64,000 nucleotides of DNA, taken from the NCBI RefSeq assembly GCF_036172515.1, contig NZ_JAXKVW010000001.1, forward strand, positions 1 through 64,000, in the 5' to 3' direction. The notes beneath the pieces were generated by a model. It worked only from the letters and a program-made list of their open reading frames with translations, had not been told where the DNA came from and did no database searches. Source of the stretch: Flexistipes sp. (lineage in GTDB: Bacteria; Chrysiogenota; Deferribacteres; Deferribacterales; Flexistipitaceae). Both the position numbers and the translations under genes were made by a program. Numbering within the stretch: the stretch's first letter is position 1; the number at the start of each line of letters is the position of its first letter. Positions 1 through 8,032 of the stretch are shown here, one piece after another.

Positions 1-230
1 GATGTATTTTTATTAAGGCTATAAACGATAAACAACTGGCCTTTTGAACACTTGTTTCCTCCATCAACTTCTGCAGATAAATGAAATATTTTGCTCCTGG
101 AATCTTGGGTAATCTTTGCATCAAAATTTTTAACCCTCACTTCACCATTCCTTCCAACAAAAAACTCTCTTGAATAAACATTTGTCGAAACGAAGGCAAA
201 TAATAAAACAAATACAGCCAAAACCCTCAT
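1..230 (-). CDS. Exported protein, partial (runs off the left edge)
   Basis: An open frame starts with ATG at 230 and reads leftwards without a stop to the window edge (76 codons visible). A GGGGG-type ribosome binding site lies just upstream. The first 20 residues form a clear signal peptide: a basic start, a hydrophobic LAVFVLLFAFVS core, and a probable cleavage near VYS. The mature part begins REFFVGRNGEVRVKNFD and shows no motif I recognise. It is probably periplasmic or envelope-associated; the function is unknown because the C-terminus is missing. Confidence 0.6.
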   Translation of the reverse strand, partial: MRVLAVFVLLFAFVSTNVYSREFFVGRNGEVRVKNFDAKITQDSRSKIFHLSAEVDGGNKCSKGQLFIVYSLNKNT

Positions 231-344
231 AGCTACCCCCTTATTCTTTAAAACATATAATTATACCCAAAGTTTTTACTTTTTGTAACGAAAATCACTT
301 TTTCTAACTGATTATTTTAAATGTGGAATTTTCTCTGGAGTAAA

Positions 345-1907
345 TTAGAATACAGCTGTTATTCCTGGCCTGTTCACTTGATATGAAAGGCCTACTATCA
401 TATCCTGCAACAATTCTCTTTTTATTCTGAACCAAAACTTCCCTCTGTTTTCTGCCTCAGGAATGTCCAATGCTTTGAATAAAAGGTAATTGAATATAAT
501 ATCATACTTCTTATTATTTATAAAAACTACAGGTGCTCCTTTATAAAATGGTCCTGATTTAGTTTTTGTACCAACAGGAAAAACGAGCCCTGAAATTAAT
601 CTTGACTTCTTCCATTTATTTTGAGCATAATCGCAAATTGGAGAAACTTCCAGTTCTACGAAATGAAAATCTGAAATTTTATCAGGAATATTTTCAAAAT
701 AAGTTGGAAGAAGTTTCTTTTTTCTTTCTTCTAAAACATCAATCATATAAACGTTCCCGGGCATATGACCTTCGCTAGGCTCTAATTCAATATGAAGTTT
801 TGTATTTATTAAGGAGGGTATGTCACTATATACTTCAGCAAGGCTGGTAAAAATTTGTTTTTCTTCGTTATCATCTGGAAGTGTAATTTTCTGACTGAAA
901 TCATCCAGCTTAATATTTTCCAATCCATTAAATTTATTATTATTTTTAAACAAAGTACCTTTTAGCCGACTATTACTATCTATATTTACACTGATTTGAT
1001 AGGTGTCATAATTTAACTTTTTAGCAATCGAGAATGGAGAATCAAGTTTGATATAATCCGGGAAATCAAGCTTCCGGATTGCATATTCGAGTTCCTCTGA
1101 AAATGATCCAGACAGAATTGACAGAGCAGCTTTCATGAATAGTTCATCAGAAAGAGTGTTTTGCCCTGTTCTTGCTTTTGCCATTCTTTTGAGTACGTCT
1201 CTCATGTTAGCTTCCCACAGGTCTGAGTACTCAATTGTGGATGATATAGCGTTCACTGTTTGATACCCAGCCTTTCTAACTAGGTTTTCCCAAATAACAA
1301 ACAAATGGAATACCCCAGCTTCTTTAAGTTCATTTTCAAGGCTATTTTCAATTTTTTCGAATGCGTCTGTCTTACTTTCATATTCTACATCTTCCTGAAA
1401 ATTACTAATAATACTTTTCTTTATTACATCAAGATCGTCTTTATCAAATTGAGATTCAATATCATCAATAACTTGATTTGCAGATTCTTCTATCCATTCC
1501 GGTTCTTTCATAATTATACATTCAGACTTTTCCAAACTGGCGATACAAATAGGGACAATACCGTGGGAAGGATTATTAATCTTTTTTTTAAACTCTTCAC
1601 CAAGCGAATAATCTTTCAAGCTCCATATCAGTAACATATAAGGACCATTATTGGGTGCAATAATATTTTTTAATACATTAATTAGAATTGTTGATATAGT
1701 ATGTTCATCGCTGGTACTCTCAATTAACTGAAGGTCAACTATGGCAAGACGAACGTTATCAAGCTGTTTTTCAGGGATATATTCCTCTCTACTACCCTTA
1801 AAATATAAGGTTGCGATACCTTTTTTTGCCAGCAAATCAATTATTGGCATTGCCTGATTAGGGTCATCATCGATTACAATCACTGAACCATTCTTCGGTA
1901 AAATCAT
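345..1907 (-). CDS. Receiver-domain protein with large unknown C-terminal region (defence-associated response regulator)
   Basis: 520 aa. The N-terminal ~120 residues look like a CheY-type receiver: an acidic triplet D13-D15 follows the first strand, and the likely phosphoacceptor D58 lies in LAIVDLQL. The remaining ~400 residues contain no DNA-binding or nuclease motif I recognise and end in a conserved-looking KFWFRIKRELLQDM segment. The gene starts 7 bp after the stop of the double-GHKL protein and is the last gene of the vsr/methylase operon. Receiver-like proteins next to GHKL ATPases are known from predicted restriction-type neighbourhoods. I infer that this one takes a phosphoryl group or a conformational signal from its neighbour and acts as effector or switch. 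The C-terminal function is unknown. Confidence 0.75.
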   Translation of the reverse strand: MILPKNGSVIVIDDDPNQAMPIIDLLAKKGIATLYFKGSREEYIPEKQLDNVRLAIVDLQLIESTSDEHTISTILINVLKNIIAPNNGPYMLLIWSLKDYSLGEEFKKKINNPSHGIVPICIASLEKSECIIMKEPEWIEESANQVIDDIESQFDKDDLDVIKKSIISNFQEDVEYESKTDAFEKIENSLENELKEAGVFHLFVIWENLVRKAGYQTVNAISSTIEYSDLWEANMRDVLKRMAKARTGQNTLSDELFMKAALSILSGSFSEELEYAIRKLDFPDYIKLDSPFSIAKKLNYDTYQISVNIDSNSRLKGTLFKNNNKFNGLENIKLDDFSQKITLPDDNEEKQIFTSLAEVYSDIPSLINTKLHIELEPSEGHMPGNVYMIDVLEERKKKLLPTYFENIPDKISDFHFVELEVSPICDYAQNKWKKSRLISGLVFPVGTKTKSGPFYKGAPVVFINNKKYDIIFNYLLFKALDIPEAENRGKFWFRIKRELLQDMIVGLSYQVNRPGITAVF

Positions 1908-1914
1908 TATAACC

Positions 1915-4038
1915 TCAGTTTTTTTTTATTTTAAAAGCTAAACCCACTATTGCTCCTGATTTAAATTCCTCTGGTATACTGAAATAATCAGATTCAGGAA
2001 ACAAAAGATTCCCGCCATGGCTATTCATTATTTCGGAAGCTAAATGCAAACCTATACCAATTCCTCCTTCTTTACTTGAAATGAAAGGCTTTATCACATC
2101 TTCCGGAGGTAATGTAAAACCTGGTCCGTTATCAGCTATTAAAATAGTTATATGCTCAGGATACTCATCACTAATTTCAACCCAAAGCTTTTTATTCTGC
2201 ACCTTTCCGTAATTCAACCACCAAATTGAATTATCGATTATATTAATGATTGTTCCAATTATAAGGTTATCAGAGCATCTTACATTACTCTCAAAATCTT
2301 TTACTTTATCAAAGCCCGTAATCATCTCGATATTGTGAGATCTGAGTCTAAAGTCAATATTCCAGAGAGCATCTTTTATTACTTGCTTAAGGTCGTGAGT
2401 TTTTTTATACCTTTTTTTTATCAGGGCACTGTATCCTTGAATCAACTCTCCGAGACGTTTGGTTAACAATTTAATTCGATCATATGATTTGGTTTCATCT
2501 ACTACTTTTAGCAATTCTGAAATTATTTTTTCTATTTCGTGGATGACAATACTCAATCCCAAACCAGCACTAGCACTCCTAATGTAGATTTCACTAATTG
2601 TTTTATAATCACTTTCAATCTCTGAGAGCATTTTCAGAATATCTTTCACTAATTTAGGATCCTTTAATTGTGCAGAACTAATTCTTTCCCGAAGTAGACT
2701 TAATGTACCGACAACCGGTTCTTTTGGAAGATTTTTCCCATAGTGGCTTCTTAGTTTCTCCTTATCAATATTTCTTTGAGTAACGACTTGGTTAATTGCA
2801 AATCTTATAGCACTATAAAAAACCCGAAATGCATTATTCTCTATAAAACCTTCACGATTGGTTTTTTCTATAAGATCCTTACTTGCCAGTCTGTCCAAAT
2901 AGATTGCTCCTATAACTATATTGTTACTAATTTTTGCAGAAGGTAGGTTGACACGCTCAAGGTCAAGATTTAACCAATCATTGCCAGGCTCGCCATAATC
3001 ATATACACGAACCCCATCCCTGTAAACACGAACACCTCCATTATCTTTTAAGTAACTTTGAAACCCTCTTTTATCCTGAATTCCTGAAAGAGACATCAAA
3101 TTGGTGTCCAAGTCAAAAATGAGCATCTTCAGCTTTATACGACCGATATCATAAGCAGAAAGGTCAATATCTTTAAACACTTGTTTTTTTTCTACTTCAT
3201 CATACTCCTTTTGCCTCATAACAACGGGATTTTCCGGTTTATATATTCGCCCTTTTAATTTTTTAAGAGTTGCCCAAGGTGTGAACTCATACTTAAAGTT
3301 AACAATCTGGTTACCTTCAAGTTCCGCTTCTGCACTGAATAAAGAATTATCCTTGATTTCGTCAAAAGATAACAAACCTCTTAACCACTCTGGTTTATCA
3401 ATTTTAAAAAAAACCCTGAAAGAATTATTTGATTCAAACGGAGAGTTCAGTGAATTAATAGCAGTATAAAGACTTCTAATGGCACCACGTGTCCATTTGT
3501 TTTTTAACTTATGTATTACTATTTTTGTGCCGTAATTTCCATCTTTAAACACCTCAGGATCTCTTTCTGAAATATTAATGGGAACATTTTCCAACATGTC
3601 ATCATTATCGAAATCTTTCCAATCTATCTTAAGTACCGCTTCTTTTTCATCCTTTTTCCTAGAAACTACTTCAATTTCTTCTCCAAGTTTATGGGCACCG
3701 AACCTCCCAATACCCTTTTCCCCGAGTGGAATTCGTTTACATGGGCTAATAAAATCTTCAGATTCAATCTGATTTTTTTTAAATGTTGTGCCTGGTACAA
3801 GCCAAATATCCTTAAAATGATTGTAATTCATTCCAAAACCGTCATCCTCAATTACTATGGAACCTAATTCAGGACTGTCCAGATTCTTCATGCTAATTGT
3901 AACTTTTCTTGCACATGCATCATATGAATTTTTAATAATTTCAAGCACAGCAATATTCTCACTCCGAATAAGCTGATCACCGAGCTGGAGAATAATTCTT
4001 GCTGTTGGCTTAAATCCAATGTTATTGTAATTTTCCAT
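1915..4038 (-). CDS. Double GHKL ATPase: MORC/Hsp90-like N-terminal module plus histidine-kinase-like C-terminal module
   Basis: 707 aa. The N-terminal module has all GHKL boxes: E33/N37/D40 in EIIKNSYDA, D65-DGFGM, and a G106-EKGIGRFG lid, as in Hsp90, MutL and MORC proteins. The C-terminal third resembles a sensor kinase: a helical segment IVIHEIEKII with candidate phospho-acceptor H500, then N-box IIDNS (~600), G1 box DNGPGF (~634) and G2 box GGIGIGL (~659). Two complete ATP-binding folds in one chain is unusual. Its start overlaps the methylase stop by 1 bp (TAATG), and the receiver-domain gene follows at once, so the three are probably made together. My inference is a DNA- or damage-sensing ATPase that signals to the receiver protein. 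H500 as a phosphorylation site is unproven. Confidence 0.8.
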   Translation of the reverse strand: MENYNNIGFKPTARIILQLGDQLIRSENIAVLEIIKNSYDACARKVTISMKNLDSPELGSIVIEDDGFGMNYNHFKDIWLVPGTTFKKNQIESEDFISPCKRIPLGEKGIGRFGAHKLGEEIEVVSRKKDEKEAVLKIDWKDFDNDDMLENVPINISERDPEVFKDGNYGTKIVIHKLKNKWTRGAIRSLYTAINSLNSPFESNNSFRVFFKIDKPEWLRGLLSFDEIKDNSLFSAEAELEGNQIVNFKYEFTPWATLKKLKGRIYKPENPVVMRQKEYDEVEKKQVFKDIDLSAYDIGRIKLKMLIFDLDTNLMSLSGIQDKRGFQSYLKDNGGVRVYRDGVRVYDYGEPGNDWLNLDLERVNLPSAKISNNIVIGAIYLDRLASKDLIEKTNREGFIENNAFRVFYSAIRFAINQVVTQRNIDKEKLRSHYGKNLPKEPVVGTLSLLRERISSAQLKDPKLVKDILKMLSEIESDYKTISEIYIRSASAGLGLSIVIHEIEKIISELLKVVDETKSYDRIKLLTKRLGELIQGYSALIKKRYKKTHDLKQVIKDALWNIDFRLRSHNIEMITGFDKVKDFESNVRCSDNLIIGTIINIIDNSIWWLNYGKVQNKKLWVEISDEYPEHITILIADNGPGFTLPPEDVIKPFISSKEGGIGIGLHLASEIMNSHGGNLLFPESDYFSIPEEFKSGAIVGLAFKIKKN

Positions 4039-5657
4039 TATTTTACCAATTCCGGGATTTGATAAGTTTCTTTAACGAACCGTTTTGCATAAATTGATTT
4101 AAATATTTCGAATACAATTTCAGCAATTTGATTTGCTAAAAGTGGTGGTACAGCGTTTCCCACCTGAACAAACTGTGAAGTTCTTGGACCGCAGAAGTAA
4201 TAGTTATCCGGAAATGTCTGAATCCTTGCAGCTTCTCTGACTGTAAAACTCCTGCACTGAGCAGGGTCAGGGTGGATGTAATAATGACCATCTTTGGAAA
4301 TATGGCTTGTAACTGTTTTACATGGTTTATTCCATAGTTGAACCCGAAATCTGTCTGCAAATTTTTTATTTTCAATTCCGTCATTTATATTTTTATGGGC
4401 TGGAAGCAAAGCTTGAGGAAAGTCTTCTAATTTGGGAGAGCGTTTTTTTACTTTAGCAAAACAGGAAGCAAATAAATAACGAGTTAAATCGCTTTTCATA
4501 TGACCTCTGGAAGAGTGGTTACAAACTCCTTCAATTCTAGGATCCAAATACCATTCTGGATAATATGGGGTTGATGTTTGTTTGTAAGTCAAATATTCTC
4601 CACCTGGTTTCTTTTCAGAAGCAGATATTTTATTCAGCTGTTTTAATATTTCTTCTTTAACAGATTTATCAATATCAACTAATATACCTTTTTCCAAAAT
4701 ATCATTTATTGCAGATTTCCAGGCTAAATTGTTATCTGCCGTTTTGGAAAGCCTGCTTCTTATTTCAGGCAAATCGGATAAAACGGATGAAATTGACACT
4801 TCACTGCTAGGCTTAAGAGTTTTAGGTGAAAATTCAATATCCTTGCGTATCCCAAGAAGAATAACCCTATGACGTGTCTGTGGGACACCAAACTTCTCAG
4901 AACGTATAACGAAATCTTGAGGACAAAAAATAGGATTACCCTTTGAATCAAAATCAGTTGGCTCAGCAACCAAAGAATAAATACGATAACCCGGGCTATT
5001 CAATTTTATATCTTTGTTCTTGCAATCAGACAAATACGCACTTCCAGGAGCTGAAAGATCAGCAAGTATTTTGGAAAATAGAGGACTTCTCAAGGTCTTT
5101 GCTGACAATAAACCTTTTACATTTTCCATTACAAAAACTGCAGGTTTATGAACTCCTAAAATTCTTAGATACTGCTTATATAAAGCTACACGCTCATCTT
5201 TCTTCTCATCAAGGACTTTTTCCCTTCTTCTTGATCGTCCGACAACTGAATATGCCTGACATGGAGGGCCACCAATCAGGACCCAGTCTTTTTCCTTATT
5301 CAGAGCGCTTTGAATCTTTTTATCAACAATAGAATTAGATACCGCTTCTTTTCCCTCTCCAAGTTCAGCCAACAAAGCTTCTGCATTAGCTTTTTTAGCT
5401 TGAAGCGGCCATCTAACGTATAGTTCAGAGAGAGTAATACGTTCTTTGATACACTCATAGTATTCTAACGGAACCTGTTCTGGCGCAAACTGGCGGAAAA
5501 AACTTCTTAATTTCAGGGTCTGATGTGCATAAGTATCTTTCTCAATCGAAAGAGCTATTTTAAATTGTCTCTTATGATTTTCTGGATTTACAAACGCACT
5601 AAACCCTTCACCAAGTCCGCCTGGTCCGGCAAATATATCAATTATAGGTATTTTCAT
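4038..5657 (-). CDS. DNA (cytosine-5-)-methyltransferase
   Basis: 539 aa. It transfers methyl groups from SAM to C5 of cytosine in DNA. Conserved motifs appear in order: motif I FAGPGGLGEGF (~9-19), the catalytic PCQ loop GGPPCQAYS (~130), motif VI ENVKG (~176), motif VIII QLWNKPCKTVTSH, and motifs IX-X including REAARIQTFP and QVGNAVPP (~497). It is longer than a minimal Dcm because of extra sequence between motifs I and IV and in the target-recognition region. The start overlaps the vsr stop by 4 bp (ATGA), indicating translational coupling. Pairing with vsr suggests protection against T:G mismatches created by 5-methylcytosine deamination. The recognition sequence cannot be read from the protein. 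Confidence 0.93.
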   Translation of the reverse strand: MKIPIIDIFAGPGGLGEGFSAFVNPENHKRQFKIALSIEKDTYAHQTLKLRSFFRQFAPEQVPLEYYECIKERITLSELYVRWPLQAKKANAEALLAELGEGKEAVSNSIVDKKIQSALNKEKDWVLIGGPPCQAYSVVGRSRRREKVLDEKKDERVALYKQYLRILGVHKPAVFVMENVKGLLSAKTLRSPLFSKILADLSAPGSAYLSDCKNKDIKLNSPGYRIYSLVAEPTDFDSKGNPIFCPQDFVIRSEKFGVPQTRHRVILLGIRKDIEFSPKTLKPSSEVSISSVLSDLPEIRSRLSKTADNNLAWKSAINDILEKGILVDIDKSVKEEILKQLNKISASEKKPGGEYLTYKQTSTPYYPEWYLDPRIEGVCNHSSRGHMKSDLTRYLFASCFAKVKKRSPKLEDFPQALLPAHKNINDGIENKKFADRFRVQLWNKPCKTVTSHISKDGHYYIHPDPAQCRSFTVREAARIQTFPDNYYFCGPRTSQFVQVGNAVPPLLANQIAEIVFEIFKSIYAKRFVKETYQIPELVK

Positions 5658-6073
5658 CTGCTTCTTAGCTGTTTCTTTATCCTTGTAAGAGTCTGTTCGC
5701 TTTTTCCATCTTTAAGCTCACATTCAAAGATTGTAATTATATTCCAGCGATCCGCTTTAAGCTTATTGGTATTTTCTAAGTCCAACTGTTTGTTTCTATT
5801 TATTTTTTTCAGCCACCACTCTGTTCTGGTTTTAGGTATTACAAAATATTTGCACTCATAATGTCCATGCCAGAAACATCCATGCACAAAAATTACTGAA
5901 TTATACTTAGGAAGTACTATGTCTGGTTTCCCCGGAAGCTTTTTGTCATGCAAGCGATATCGAAAACCTTGGCTATGTAAGTATTTTCTCACTATCATTT
6001 CAGGCTTAGTGTTTTTTGATCTAATTTGACTCATATTATAACTACGCGTTTTATTATTATGAACATCGGCCAT
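5654..6073 (-). CDS. vsr: Very short patch repair endonuclease Vsr
   Basis: 139 aa, the normal length for Vsr. The family nicks 5' to the T in T:G mismatches left by deaminated 5-methylcytosine. Visible family residues include the N-terminal MSQIRSKNTKPE segment (E25), the catalytic aspartate D51 in GKPDIVLPK, H64 in FVHGCFWHGH with C66 and H69/H71 (zinc and catalytic region), and the aromatic EWWL segment. It is the first gene of the operon and overlaps the methylase start by 4 bp. In some defence systems Vsr-like nucleases act as restriction enzymes rather than repair enzymes. Here it is the only nuclease motif I can identify in the operon, so it could do either. Confidence 0.93.
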   Translation of the reverse strand: MADVHNNKTRSYNMSQIRSKNTKPEMIVRKYLHSQGFRYRLHDKKLPGKPDIVLPKYNSVIFVHGCFWHGHYECKYFVIPKTRTEWWLKKINRNKQLDLENTNKLKADRWNIITIFECELKDGKSEQTLTRIKKQLRSR

Positions 6074-6673
6074 TTTCTATCCAAGTATGAAAATCAATTT
6101 TGCACATAATAAATCTTATTTTCACAATCCCTGTATGTCAACGAAAACTTCTTTTTATTAATTTTATTGCCTTATATGCAAGTGATACACAAACATTATA
6201 TTCGTTTGTTAATGATAAACAGGAAACTTTTATCTCTTTAAACATATATAATATTCTACGCATAGGTTTTATAAAGAATCTTTTTAAGAAGTCTACTTTT
6301 CTCTTTTTATGTGATTTGTTTGGCAAATCGGGAAATATAGTCTGTCCGAAGGAATGCCACCCACACACTTCTTATGAATGTCATGAGTAAATAATCTAAG
6401 CATGAGCGCAAGTTTTCGAAAATATATTTTAAATCTATTTTTAGTTCCTCAGAAACTCTCTAATGTTATAAGGAAGACTCATAGTTCGCTTTTAATGTAG
6501 TGAAGTCCTTTTTAGTTTTTTCGACGAGCGCTTTGATGCTCTTGCTTCCTCTTACAACTTTCTCCTTTTATGTGTGTGGGTTGCCGGAATGCAAAGCATG
6601 TAAGTTATCCGAATTATGTTGTTGGACGCCGGTATTGTAAAGTAGCTTTTTCGTATTTAGAACTGTTCAGTGT
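6074..6673. other. Gene-poor interval between vsr and the phosphoesterase
   Basis: About 600 bp without a convincing gene. It holds the vsr operon promoter. On the minus strand, 6466-6561 has coding-like sequence (reads ...SIKALVEKTKKDFTTLKANYESSL then stop) without a start codon. It follows an in-frame stop, so it may be the decayed tail of a lost gene. Open frames on both strands between 6100 and 6390 have no recognisable motif and I do not call them. Confidence 0.4.
6113..6141 (-). promoter_or_regulatory. Sigma-70 type promoter of the vsr-methylase-GHKL-receiver operon
   Basis: On the minus strand a perfect TTGACA (6136-6141) is separated by 17 bp from TAAGAT (6113-6118). The predicted transcript starts near 6106, giving a short leader before the vsr ATG at 6073. 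No comparable box was seen between the four genes. Confidence 0.55.
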
Positions 6674-8032
6674 TTAGTTTATAAGTTTTGCTTTTTTAAG
6701 CTTTTCATATGCATGAGTGTCGAATAAATCTAAAGGACGACTTAATGAACATGACTCTACTCCGTTATTTTCGAACTCTTTTGAGTCAATATTGTAATAA
6801 TATGAGTGACACTGTATATTGCGACTTCCGTCAATTTGATAGATATAGAACCCATTTTCTCTGGAATTCTTTTTTGTTGCAGTTGCCGCCACAGAATTAA
6901 TGAGTTTTCGATTCTTTAGCACACTACGTATTTCGTCATTAACAACTCCAGCTATTTCATCTAGAGTTTTACGTACTTGGCTGTCCGATAGATCCACCTT
7001 CAAAAATTCTTTATAACCCTTCTTAATAGACCGCTCAGCGAGCGTAATGCCTTTGAATCGATAGAATTTTGTAGCGGCTACATCATCCATTCCCTCCGCT
7101 TTGCTCTTGACGTATTCAATCGCAATGCGCAATGTTTTTGGCAGTAATTTATTATTATTTTTGTCTATGTGGTAAACAGGTGGCCTTTTTATTCCAAGTT
7201 GCCTTACACAATACATTCTTGCAAAACGGCGAATTGCTCTGTGATCAAGTAAGTCTTGGTATTTTTGGCTGCTAAAGACGTCATGGTGGTCGTGTCCGGC
7301 AAGCACCATATCAAAGTCGTCTGAAACAATTTGACCCAATACCTCATGGGCATTAGTTAAGCTCATAAAGGGCTGTTTTCCGTATGCTTTAGGTAGATAT
7401 AAAAAATGGTGTAATACTATAATCTTGTAGCTTCTGTTGAACAAATTAGCTGCCTCTTCTTCACTATTAAGACCATCAATACCGAGAAACAGGCCGTCTT
7501 TTTTCAGGTTTCCGTGACGACCTTGATCTGTCCATTTGCGAACCAATTCCAAATCGTTTTTTTCAACGTAGCCGTTGGCTATGCTCTTTTCTCCTGGCGA
7601 TTCTAATGCGATAATATATGCGGATACATCTTTCCCGTTAGAGCAGAAGTGCCATCTGGGTAGTTTGTGTCTTTTGAAAACGTTATAGTAATTGACCTTT
7701 GGATCTCCTTTCGGCAATTGGAAAGGAGATCCATTCGAAGTGTAGTAATCGTGATTGCCCGGTATTATTATGACTTTATTCGAAAAGTTCTCTCCAAGTC
7801 GCAGGCCAAATGCTTTGTTTGTGTCGAATGGACTGATGGCACCCTTAAGCCAACTAAGTACGAACTGAAGTGAATATTCTTCGTTAGATTCCGATATGTC
7901 TCCAGATATCACGTAAAGATCTGGATTCAATGATATGAGTTTCCTTGTAAGTGCCTCCCATATATGCCAAGAATGTCCACCGACATGGAGATCCGACAAA
8001 TGGGCAACTGACAATATTCTATCTTTCACCAT
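6674..8032 (-). CDS. Calcineurin-like metallophosphoesterase
   Basis: 452 aa. The N-terminal ~250 residues carry the binuclear metal motifs in order: H11/D14/H16 in HLSDLHVGG, GD in VISGDIS, GNHD in IIPGNHDYY, the later H in IVLHHF, and GHDHHD. Family members hydrolyse phosphodiesters of nucleic acids or cyclic nucleotides. The C-terminal ~200 residues are unassigned and end in a RPLDLFDTHAYEKLKK segment. The start has GGAGG 5 nt upstream. It has its own promoter and lies beside the vsr/methylase operon in the same direction, so a role in the same defence island is possible but not shown. Confidence 0.88.
   Translation of the reverse strand: MVKDRILSVAHLSDLHVGGHSWHIWEALTRKLISLNPDLYVISGDISESNEEYSLQFVLSWLKGAISPFDTNKAFGLRLGENFSNKVIIIPGNHDYYTSNGSPFQLPKGDPKVNYYNVFKRHKLPRWHFCSNGKDVSAYIIALESPGEKSIANGYVEKNDLELVRKWTDQGRHGNLKKDGLFLGIDGLNSEEEAANLFNRSYKIIVLHHFLYLPKAYGKQPFMSLTNAHEVLGQIVSDDFDMVLAGHDHHDVFSSQKYQDLLDHRAIRRFARMYCVRQLGIKRPPVYHIDKNNNKLLPKTLRIAIEYVKSKAEGMDDVAATKFYRFKGITLAERSIKKGYKEFLKVDLSDSQVRKTLDEIAGVVNDEIRSVLKNRKLINSVAATATKKNSRENGFYIYQIDGSRNIQCHSYYYNIDSKEFENNGVESCSLSRPLDLFDTHAYEKLKKAKLIN

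What the first reader, a model, noticed from the sequence alone, without database searches (positions are those of the whole stretch)
345..6141. Candidate phosphorelay-controlled methylase/Vsr defence operon
Seen: four genes (vsr, C5-methylase, a protein with two complete GHKL ATPase modules, a receiver-domain protein) with overlaps of 4 and 1 bp and a 7-bp gap, behind one TTGACA-N17-TAAGAT promoter. Known: GHKL/MORC-like ATPases and receiver-like proteins occur in predicted restriction-type neighbourhoods described by Aravind and colleagues, and a two-component-like antiphage system (Detocs) exists. Inference: the C-terminal kinase-like half (H500 in an HE helix) signals to D58 of the receiver protein, whose ~400-residue tail would be the effector or switch. 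The coupling of DNA methylation, mismatch nicking and a phosphorelay has no mechanism I know of.
Basis: partly seen in the sequence, partly recalled or inferred. Interest (0 to 1): 0.85.

Follow-up and report, generated by a model that had tools for sequence, protein, structure and literature searches.

The report
Phosphorelay pair within methylation-based defence operon
A bacterial four-gene operon joins a DNA-marking enzyme and its usual repair helper to a soluble two-protein signalling relay with a DNA-clamp-like sensor; relatives in many phyla plug the same relay into very different DNA-cutting systems, so it probably acts as a swappable switch for defence, although nothing has been tested in the lab.

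Summary
In detail: Vsr, C5-methylase, a protein with two GHKL modules and a receiver protein form a compact minus-strand operon (345-6073) with the stated overlaps, promoter, H500 and D58. Both residues are invariant in homologues: H500 in 66 of 66, D58 in 72 of 72. The kind was predicted in 2021 (Bellieny-Rabelo et al., PMC8011034: HEF_HK/Response_reg_2 beside C5-methylases, type II R-M and Vsr), building on the paraMORCs of Iyer et al. 2008. The window's subfamily escapes those Pfam models (receiver 0/72, kinase 1/66). New here, from 91 related loci: (1) kinase and receiver are one inherited unit (distance correlation r=0.91), while the methylase is exchanged (r=0.20). (2) Vsr is a repair accessory, not the effector: it never co-occurs with a HhH-GPD glycosylase that takes its place (0 of 55, p=0.004), and it accompanies genuine restriction enzymes (17 of 22). 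(3) The nuclease slot is swappable: Mza, HNH, EcoRII-C, MvaI/BcnI or AspBHI/Mrr. (4) The receiver's tail has no solved relative and carries invariant G384, C425, D426 and R513. No nuclease was recognised with the window operon, but the contig ends 345 bp downstream. Best reading: a new variant of a known, experimentally untested kind, in which a MORC-like sensor kinase phosphorylates a receiver that licenses restriction.

The parts
6113..6141 (-). predicted sigma-70-type promoter TTGACA-N17-TAAGAT
   Evidence: 10 of 12 consensus matches; only match in 64 kb, 0.07 expected; consensus match only, function not shown
5654..6073 (-). vsr: E. coli-type very-short-patch mismatch endonuclease, 139 aa; repair accessory of the methylase
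   Evidence: PF03852 1.1e-34; TIGR00632 136 bits against cut-off 97.85; E. coli Vsr 1cw0 E=8e-33 over residues 2-126; alternates with HhH-GPD glycosylase in relatives
4038..5657 (-). C5-cytosine DNA methyltransferase, 539 aa (GPPCQ, ENVKG and QTRHR motifs present)
   Evidence: PF00145 2.8e-44; best PADLOC hit DrmMII 2.9e-97; tree clade 98/95 with methylases of Mza- and AspBHI-type loci
1915..4038 (-). HK-like sensor: N-terminal MORC/Hsp90-type GHKL plus S5 module (about 1-400), linker helices, histidine-bearing helix with H500-E501 (about 490-540), C-terminal histidine-kinase ATPase (about 546-707)
   Evidence: kinase half to ZraS/HK853 class, N-terminal half to Hsp90/MutL; MORC2, MORC3, Hsp90 folds; H500 invariant in 66 homologues
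345..1907 (-). RR-like protein: receiver domain (about 1-130; D13, D14, D58, S96, K127) plus about 390-residue tail with invariant G384, C425-D426 and R513
   Evidence: AlphaFold pLDDT 93.2; Foldseek receiver matches at probability 1.00; conservation; tail without PDB or Pfam match

Best explanation
The operon is a horizontally acquired modification-and-signalling cassette of a restriction-type defence system. The C5-methylase marks self DNA. Vsr repairs the T:G mismatches that arise when the mark deaminates. The 707-aa protein is a soluble sensor kinase whose N-terminal MORC-like GHKL-S5 clamp engages DNA (inferred: lacking the mark, or otherwise foreign) and, on ATP-driven dimer closure, aligns the helix that carries H500 with the C-terminal kinase ATPase. 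H500 phosphate passes to D58 of the receiver protein. Phosphorylated receiver switches on a defence output through its tail: in relatives most simply by licensing the adjacent restriction module (Mza, HNH, EcoRII-C, MvaI/BcnI or AspBHI/Mrr). In the window no such module was recognised, so the output is the tail itself, a nuclease encoded elsewhere, or has been lost. Shown by computation: domain content, conserved catalytic residues, inseparability of kinase and receiver, exchange of methylase and nuclease, repair-type behaviour of Vsr. Inferred: DNA sensing, phosphotransfer, activation of a nuclease, antiphage effect.
For: H500 invariant in 66 kinases and D58 in 72 receivers; standard receiver residues kept. 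Kinase half matches true histidine kinases and N-terminal half matches Hsp90/MutL/MORC. Receiver gene adjacent to the kinase gene in 75 of 79 genome loci, two of the four exceptions being a contig end and a fragmented kinase. Distance correlation kinase-receiver 0.91 against 0.20 for kinase-methylase over 78-80 loci. Methylase within 6.5 kb in 80 of 91 loci, Vsr 48, glycosylase 7, type II restriction enzymes 22, Mza 17 (identities). Closest kinase relatives (65-70%) carry restriction genes directly after the receiver gene: L014 and L016 Mza, L015 AspBHI/Mrr. Kinase and receiver not found in two congeners and sparse in the phylum. Homologues on plasmids and viral contigs.
Against: No phosphotransfer, DNA binding or phage protection has been measured for any member. 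Coevolution between kinase and receiver gave no contact-level signal. No recognised nuclease partner for the window copy: Z1 and HNH_2 absent from the genome, Mrr_cat only as a 115-aa frame. About half of the Vsr-bearing loci (26 of 48) also show no recognised restriction module within 6.5 kb, some because contigs are short. Enrichment in defence islands was not tested statistically.
Confidence: 0.5

Rival explanations
1. The receiver protein is itself the effector: its tail (invariant G384, C425-D426, R513) is an enzyme or toxin switched on by phosphorylation, so Vsr-methylase-kinase-receiver is complete without a separate nuclease.
For: Tail is confidently folded, has four invariant residues in 68-72 homologues and no known fold match. 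Many loci show no recognised nuclease. A Cys-Asp motif also appears in the tails of the two Response_reg_2 proteins examined.
Against: No catalytic motif of any known nuclease or toxin is visible. About 40% of loci do carry a recognisable restriction module, directly after the receiver gene in the closest relatives. Invariant residues could equally serve binding.
Confidence: 0.22
2. Control of the R-M genes: the kinase-receiver pair senses cell state or invading DNA and regulates expression or activity of the methylase and nuclease (for example restriction alleviation), not attack itself.
For: Proposed in PMC8011034. The pair is exchanged among methylases and nucleases of unrelated families, as a generic controller would be.
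Against: The receiver protein has no recognisable DNA-binding domain (PDB search). The sensor is a MORC/Hsp90-type DNA or protein clamp rather than a ligand-binding sensor. The pair often shares one operon with its targets.
Confidence: 0.2
3. Vsr is the restriction nuclease of this system, directed by the GHKL ATPase as MutL directs MutH.
For: Iyer et al. 2008 drew the MutL-MutH/Vsr analogy. Vsr is the only recognised nuclease in the window operon.
Against: Window Vsr is an ordinary E. coli-type Vsr. A HhH-GPD mismatch glycosylase takes its place in 7 loci, never together with it (p=0.004). Vsr accompanies genuine restriction enzymes in 17 of 22 loci (p=0.013). Vsr distances follow the methylase (0.43) more than the kinase (0.27).
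Confidence: 0.05
4. Degraded remnant: the operon has lost its restriction module and now serves as an orphan methylase-repair set with an idle relay.
For: Closest methylase kin sit in Mza- or AspBHI-type loci but Z1 is absent from the genome. The sequence downstream of the receiver gene is an unrelated secreted-protein gene that is repeated elsewhere in the genome.
Against: All four genes are intact with all catalytic residues. Four-gene loci without a recognised nuclease are common (26 of 48 Vsr loci). The contig ends 345 bp after the receiver gene, so an adjacent gene could lie on another contig.
Confidence: 0.15

Closest known systems
HEF_HK (PF19191) / Response_reg_2 (PF19192) two-component-like pair beside R-M systems (Bellieny-Rabelo et al. 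2021, PMC8011034)
   Same: HATPase_c_3 + histidine helix + HATPase_c soluble kinase next to a receiver-like protein; neighbours are C5-methylases, type II restriction enzymes and Vsr; kinase homologous over its length by profile comparison (probability 100, E=2e-43); receiver tail with a Cys-Asp motif in both
   Different: Pfam models miss this subfamily: 0 of 72 receivers, 1 of 66 kinases. Kinases here lack the roughly 300-residue insert of the two HEF_HK proteins examined (707 against 982-1023 aa). Receiver homology is weak by profile alone (probability 7, E=0.005).
MORC / paraMORC GHKL ATPases of restriction systems (Iyer et al. 2008, PMC2292703)
   Same: N-terminal GHKL plus S5 module in operons with C5-methylases, Vsr and restriction nucleases; structural match to MORC2 and MORC3
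   Different: A full histidine-kinase module is appended and a receiver partner follows; neither is described for paraMORC1-5 in the parts of the paper read
Mza (MzaABCDE) and Z1/DUF4420/C5-methylase systems (PMC9523054; PADLOC models)
   Same: 17 of 91 loci carry MzaB, C or D homologues next to the pair; window methylase nests among methylases of such loci
   Different: Window genome has no Z1 helicase; kinase-receiver pair is not part of Mza as defined in PADLOC or PMC9523054
Dcm-Vsr very-short-patch repair of E. coli
   Same: C5-methylase with an E. coli-type Vsr overlapping it
   Different: In an operon with a signalling pair; methylase target sequence unknown
Detocs two-component-like antiphage system (own knowledge; no paper in the held library named it)
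   Same: Cytosolic kinase-to-receiver logic proposed for defence
   Different: N-terminal MORC-like module and methylase linkage here; receiver tail has no nucleosidase or other known effector domain

Membership tests
HEF_HK/Response_reg_2 TCS-like pair (PMC8011034) | Kinase matches Pfam HEF_HK (PF19191) | tested here: not met
   No hit for the window protein; 1 of 66 homologues hits
HEF_HK/Response_reg_2 TCS-like pair (PMC8011034) | Receiver matches Pfam Response_reg_2 (PF19192) | tested here: not met
   0 of 72 homologues
HEF_HK/Response_reg_2 TCS-like pair (PMC8011034) | Kinase architecture HATPase_c_3 + invariant His-acidic helix + HATPase_c, no membrane domain | tested here: met
   Both ATPase domains in 66 of 66, H500 invariant; profile homology E=2e-43; membrane segments not scanned separately
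HEF_HK/Response_reg_2 TCS-like pair (PMC8011034) | Adjacent receiver with acidic pair, Asp, Thr/Ser and Lys | tested here: met
HEF_HK/Response_reg_2 TCS-like pair (PMC8011034) | Linkage to C5-methylase and type II R-M, Vsr in part | tested here: met
   Methylase 80/91, Vsr 48/91, type II restriction enzymes 22/91
Histidine kinase / response regulator phosphorelay | Intact H, N, G1, G2 boxes and receiver catalytic residues | tested here: met
Histidine kinase / response regulator phosphorelay | Autophosphorylation and transfer | not testable with these tools
   Needs biochemistry
Restriction-modification system | DNA methylase | tested here: met
Restriction-modification system | Cognate restriction nuclease | tested here: inconclusive
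   None recognised in the operon; Z1, HNH_2 and a full Mrr_cat enzyme not found in the genome; DUF4420 search had no positive control; contig ends after the receiver gene
Mza system | MzaC (Z1) and MzaD (DUF4420) | tested here: not met
   Z1 absent with a working control; DUF4420 not found but without control
DISARM | DrmA/B/C helicase and effector genes with the methylase | tested here: not met
   Methylase scores best with DrmMII, but the operon holds no drm gene besides the methylase
Detocs | Receiver-fused nucleotide-degrading effector | tested here: not met
   No such domain in 72 receivers by Pfam; no fold match of the tail
Vsr mismatch endonuclease | Vsr fold and catalytic motifs | tested here: met
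   1cw0 E=8e-33, aligned over residues 2-126

The most novel reading that the evidence does not exclude
A freely exchanged MORC-kinase/receiver cassette that gives unrelated restriction systems (type II enzymes, Mza and, in a variant, a metallo-beta-lactamase-fold enzyme with an N6-methylase) a common phosphorelay trigger, with a receiver tail of new fold as the universal adaptor or effector.
Probability: 0.35. Interest if true: 0.85.

Novelty: new variant of a known kind. Interest (0 to 1): 0.58.

Why it matters
Restriction is usually thought of as an enzyme that cuts wherever its site is unmodified. A widespread, separately inherited phosphorelay that plugs into many different restriction modules would mean that cutting is gated by a signalling decision, and would make the long-open role of prokaryotic MORC-type ATPases directly testable with two point mutations (H500, D58). 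The data also settle a smaller point: Vsr in these operons behaves as repair of the methyl mark, since an unrelated glycosylase can take its place.

Tried and rejected
Receiver protein alone as a search query: no match in plasmids, in 146 other genomes or in genome contigs, because it diverges fast; the kinase alignment worked. Vsr as the cutter: rejected by the co-occurrence tests. Mza as an unlinked partner in the same genome: Z1 absent. Mrr-type partner: the only hit is a 115-aa frame beside what looks like ribonuclease HII, probably a YraN-type protein. First co-occurrence count missed Vsr in overlapping frames and was redone. Contact-level covariation of kinase and receiver: dominated by phylogeny, no signal. 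Fold search of the tail: no credible match in PDB or viral libraries. Receiver homology to Response_reg_2 by profile alone: inconclusive. PHROGs: nothing.

Full report
1. Observation. The four genes are present on the minus strand exactly as described: Vsr 6073-5654, C5-methylase 5657-4038, two-GHKL protein 4038-1915, receiver protein 1907-345, with overlaps of 4 and 1 bp and a 7-bp gap. The promoter TTGACA-N17-TAAGAT at 6141-6113 is the only match of that pattern in 64 kb (0.07 expected). Pfam confirms Vsr, DNA_methylase and the two ATPase domains; the 520-aa protein has no Pfam hit. A structure model of it (68 sequences, mean pLDDT 93.2) shows a receiver domain: several solved receivers match at probability 1.00, although Foldseek E-values for the whole chain are only 0.003-0.1.

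2. Homologues. The receiver protein found nothing by itself. An alignment of five kinases found 79 loci in one genome per species and 29 viral contigs, plus plasmid and phage records. The genome loci span Bacteroidota, Ignavibacteriota, Pseudomonadota, Spirochaetota, Campylobacterota, Bacillota, Planctomycetota, Nitrospirota, Acidobacteriota, Fibrobacterota, Actinomycetota and others by record title. I used own profiles for kinase, receiver, methylase and Vsr, laid out the neighbourhoods, identified the recurring neighbours and counted 91 loci with kinase and receiver after removing near-duplicates.

3. The relay. H500 is invariant in 66 kinases and E501 is over 90% conserved; both ATPase modules keep their motifs. 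The receiver keeps D13 (67 of 68), D14 (59), D58 (68), S or T at 96 (66) and K127 (67). The kinase half resembles ZraS and HK853-class kinases; the N-terminal half resembles Hsp90 and MutL by sequence and MORC2, MORC3 and Hsp90 by fold. The receiver gene lies next to the kinase gene in 75 of 79 genome loci; of the four exceptions one is a contig end and one a fragmented kinase gene. Pairwise distances of kinase and receiver correlate at 0.91; kinase and methylase only at 0.20; methylase and Vsr at 0.43. Some of the 0.91 reflects shared inheritance rather than contact, and a contact-level test found nothing. The sound conclusion is that kinase and receiver are one unit, joined to exchangeable methylases.

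4. Vsr is repair. The window's Vsr aligns with E. coli Vsr over nearly its whole length. In 7 loci a HhH-GPD glycosylase of the kind PADLOC lists with Vsr-like nicking enzymes is present; none of these has Vsr (48 Vsr only, 7 glycosylase only, 0 both, 36 neither; p=0.004). Loci are not independent, but the methylase tree places the glycosylase loci on at least three separate branches. Vsr is more frequent where a type II restriction enzyme is present (17 of 22 against 31 of 69, p=0.013). Both facts fit a repair enzyme that protects the methyl mark, and argue against Vsr being the cutter.

5. The nuclease slot. Recognised restriction modules near the pair are HNH_2, MvaI/BcnI, EcoRII-C, AspBHI-N/Mrr (22 loci together) and Mza components (17 loci); 3 loci have both kinds. 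Others have type I, Eco57I-like or McrB-like genes. The closest relatives by kinase carry restriction genes directly after the receiver gene: Mza in L014 and L016, an AspBHI/Mrr-type enzyme in L015. The window methylase falls in a supported clade (98/95) with those of L014, L015, L026 and L032.

6. The window copy. No such module is next to it. The genome has no Z1 helicase and no HNH_2 (controls worked), no DUF4420 (no positive control), and a Mrr_cat hit only in a 115-aa frame. Its only other C5-methylase belongs to a separate Vsr-methylase locus. But the contig begins at window position 1, inside a gene repeated at 93% next to a type I R-M system elsewhere in the genome, so a nuclease beyond the break cannot be excluded. 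The kinase and receiver were not found in the two congeners searched, and the best kinase relatives are in Bacteroidota and Ignavibacteriota, which points to horizontal acquisition.

7. The tail. Beyond the receiver domain lie about 390 residues with invariant G384, C425, D426 and R513. No Pfam, PHROG, PDB-sequence or fold match was found. Two Response_reg_2 proteins fetched for comparison carry a similar Cys-Asp motif in their tails, which, with the full-length homology of their kinases, links the two subfamilies. Whether the tail is enzyme, adaptor or DNA-binding part is open.

8. Prior knowledge. The pair beside C5-methylases, type II R-M and Vsr was predicted by Bellieny-Rabelo et al. 2021 (PMC8011034); the ATPases and their R-M neighbourhoods by Iyer et al. 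2008 (PMC2292703). Mza-like neighbours are discussed in PMC9523054. I found no experimental test in the held library, which lacks most subscription papers and preprints. The window's subfamily is missed by the published Pfam models, so it is a new variant of a known, untested kind.

Noticed in passing
window 1-307; L138 3069-3376: Window start is a 93% repeat of a stretch on contig C3 holding a 122-aa signal-peptide gene that lies just upstream of type I R-M-like genes (HsdM-, Fic-, HsdS- and HsdR-like by reading the sequence). The contig break is therefore probably a repeat at the edge of two defence islands.
   Followed up: partly
window 6674-8032 (-): Calcineurin-like phosphoesterase about 600 bp upstream of vsr, weakly similar to the DS9_1 anti-phage phosphoesterase model (1.4e-05, below cut-off); no homologue near other kinase-receiver loci.
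   Followed up: partly
L126 10485-13105 (genome contig C5): Second, separate Vsr - C5-methylase - 360-aa unknown protein operon with integrase-like genes nearby; the 360-aa protein has no Pfam hit and may be a restriction enzyme.
   Followed up: partly
L012, L108, L111, L112: Variant: N6-methylase-like protein - kinase - short receiver protein without the Cys-Asp tail - metallo-beta-lactamase-fold hydrolase, suggesting a separate effector gene.
   Followed up: no
L015, L044, L058, L065, L074: AspBHI-N/Mrr-type enzyme, a family of methylation-dependent nucleases, near the kinase-receiver pair, in four of the five with a C5-methylase; how self-cutting is avoided is unclear.
   Followed up: no
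L017, L019, L022, L045, L064, L066, L091: HhH-GPD glycosylase takes the place of Vsr next to the kinase-receiver pair.
   Followed up: yes
L027: Two kinase-receiver sets side by side in one locus, without a methylase nearby.
   Followed up: no
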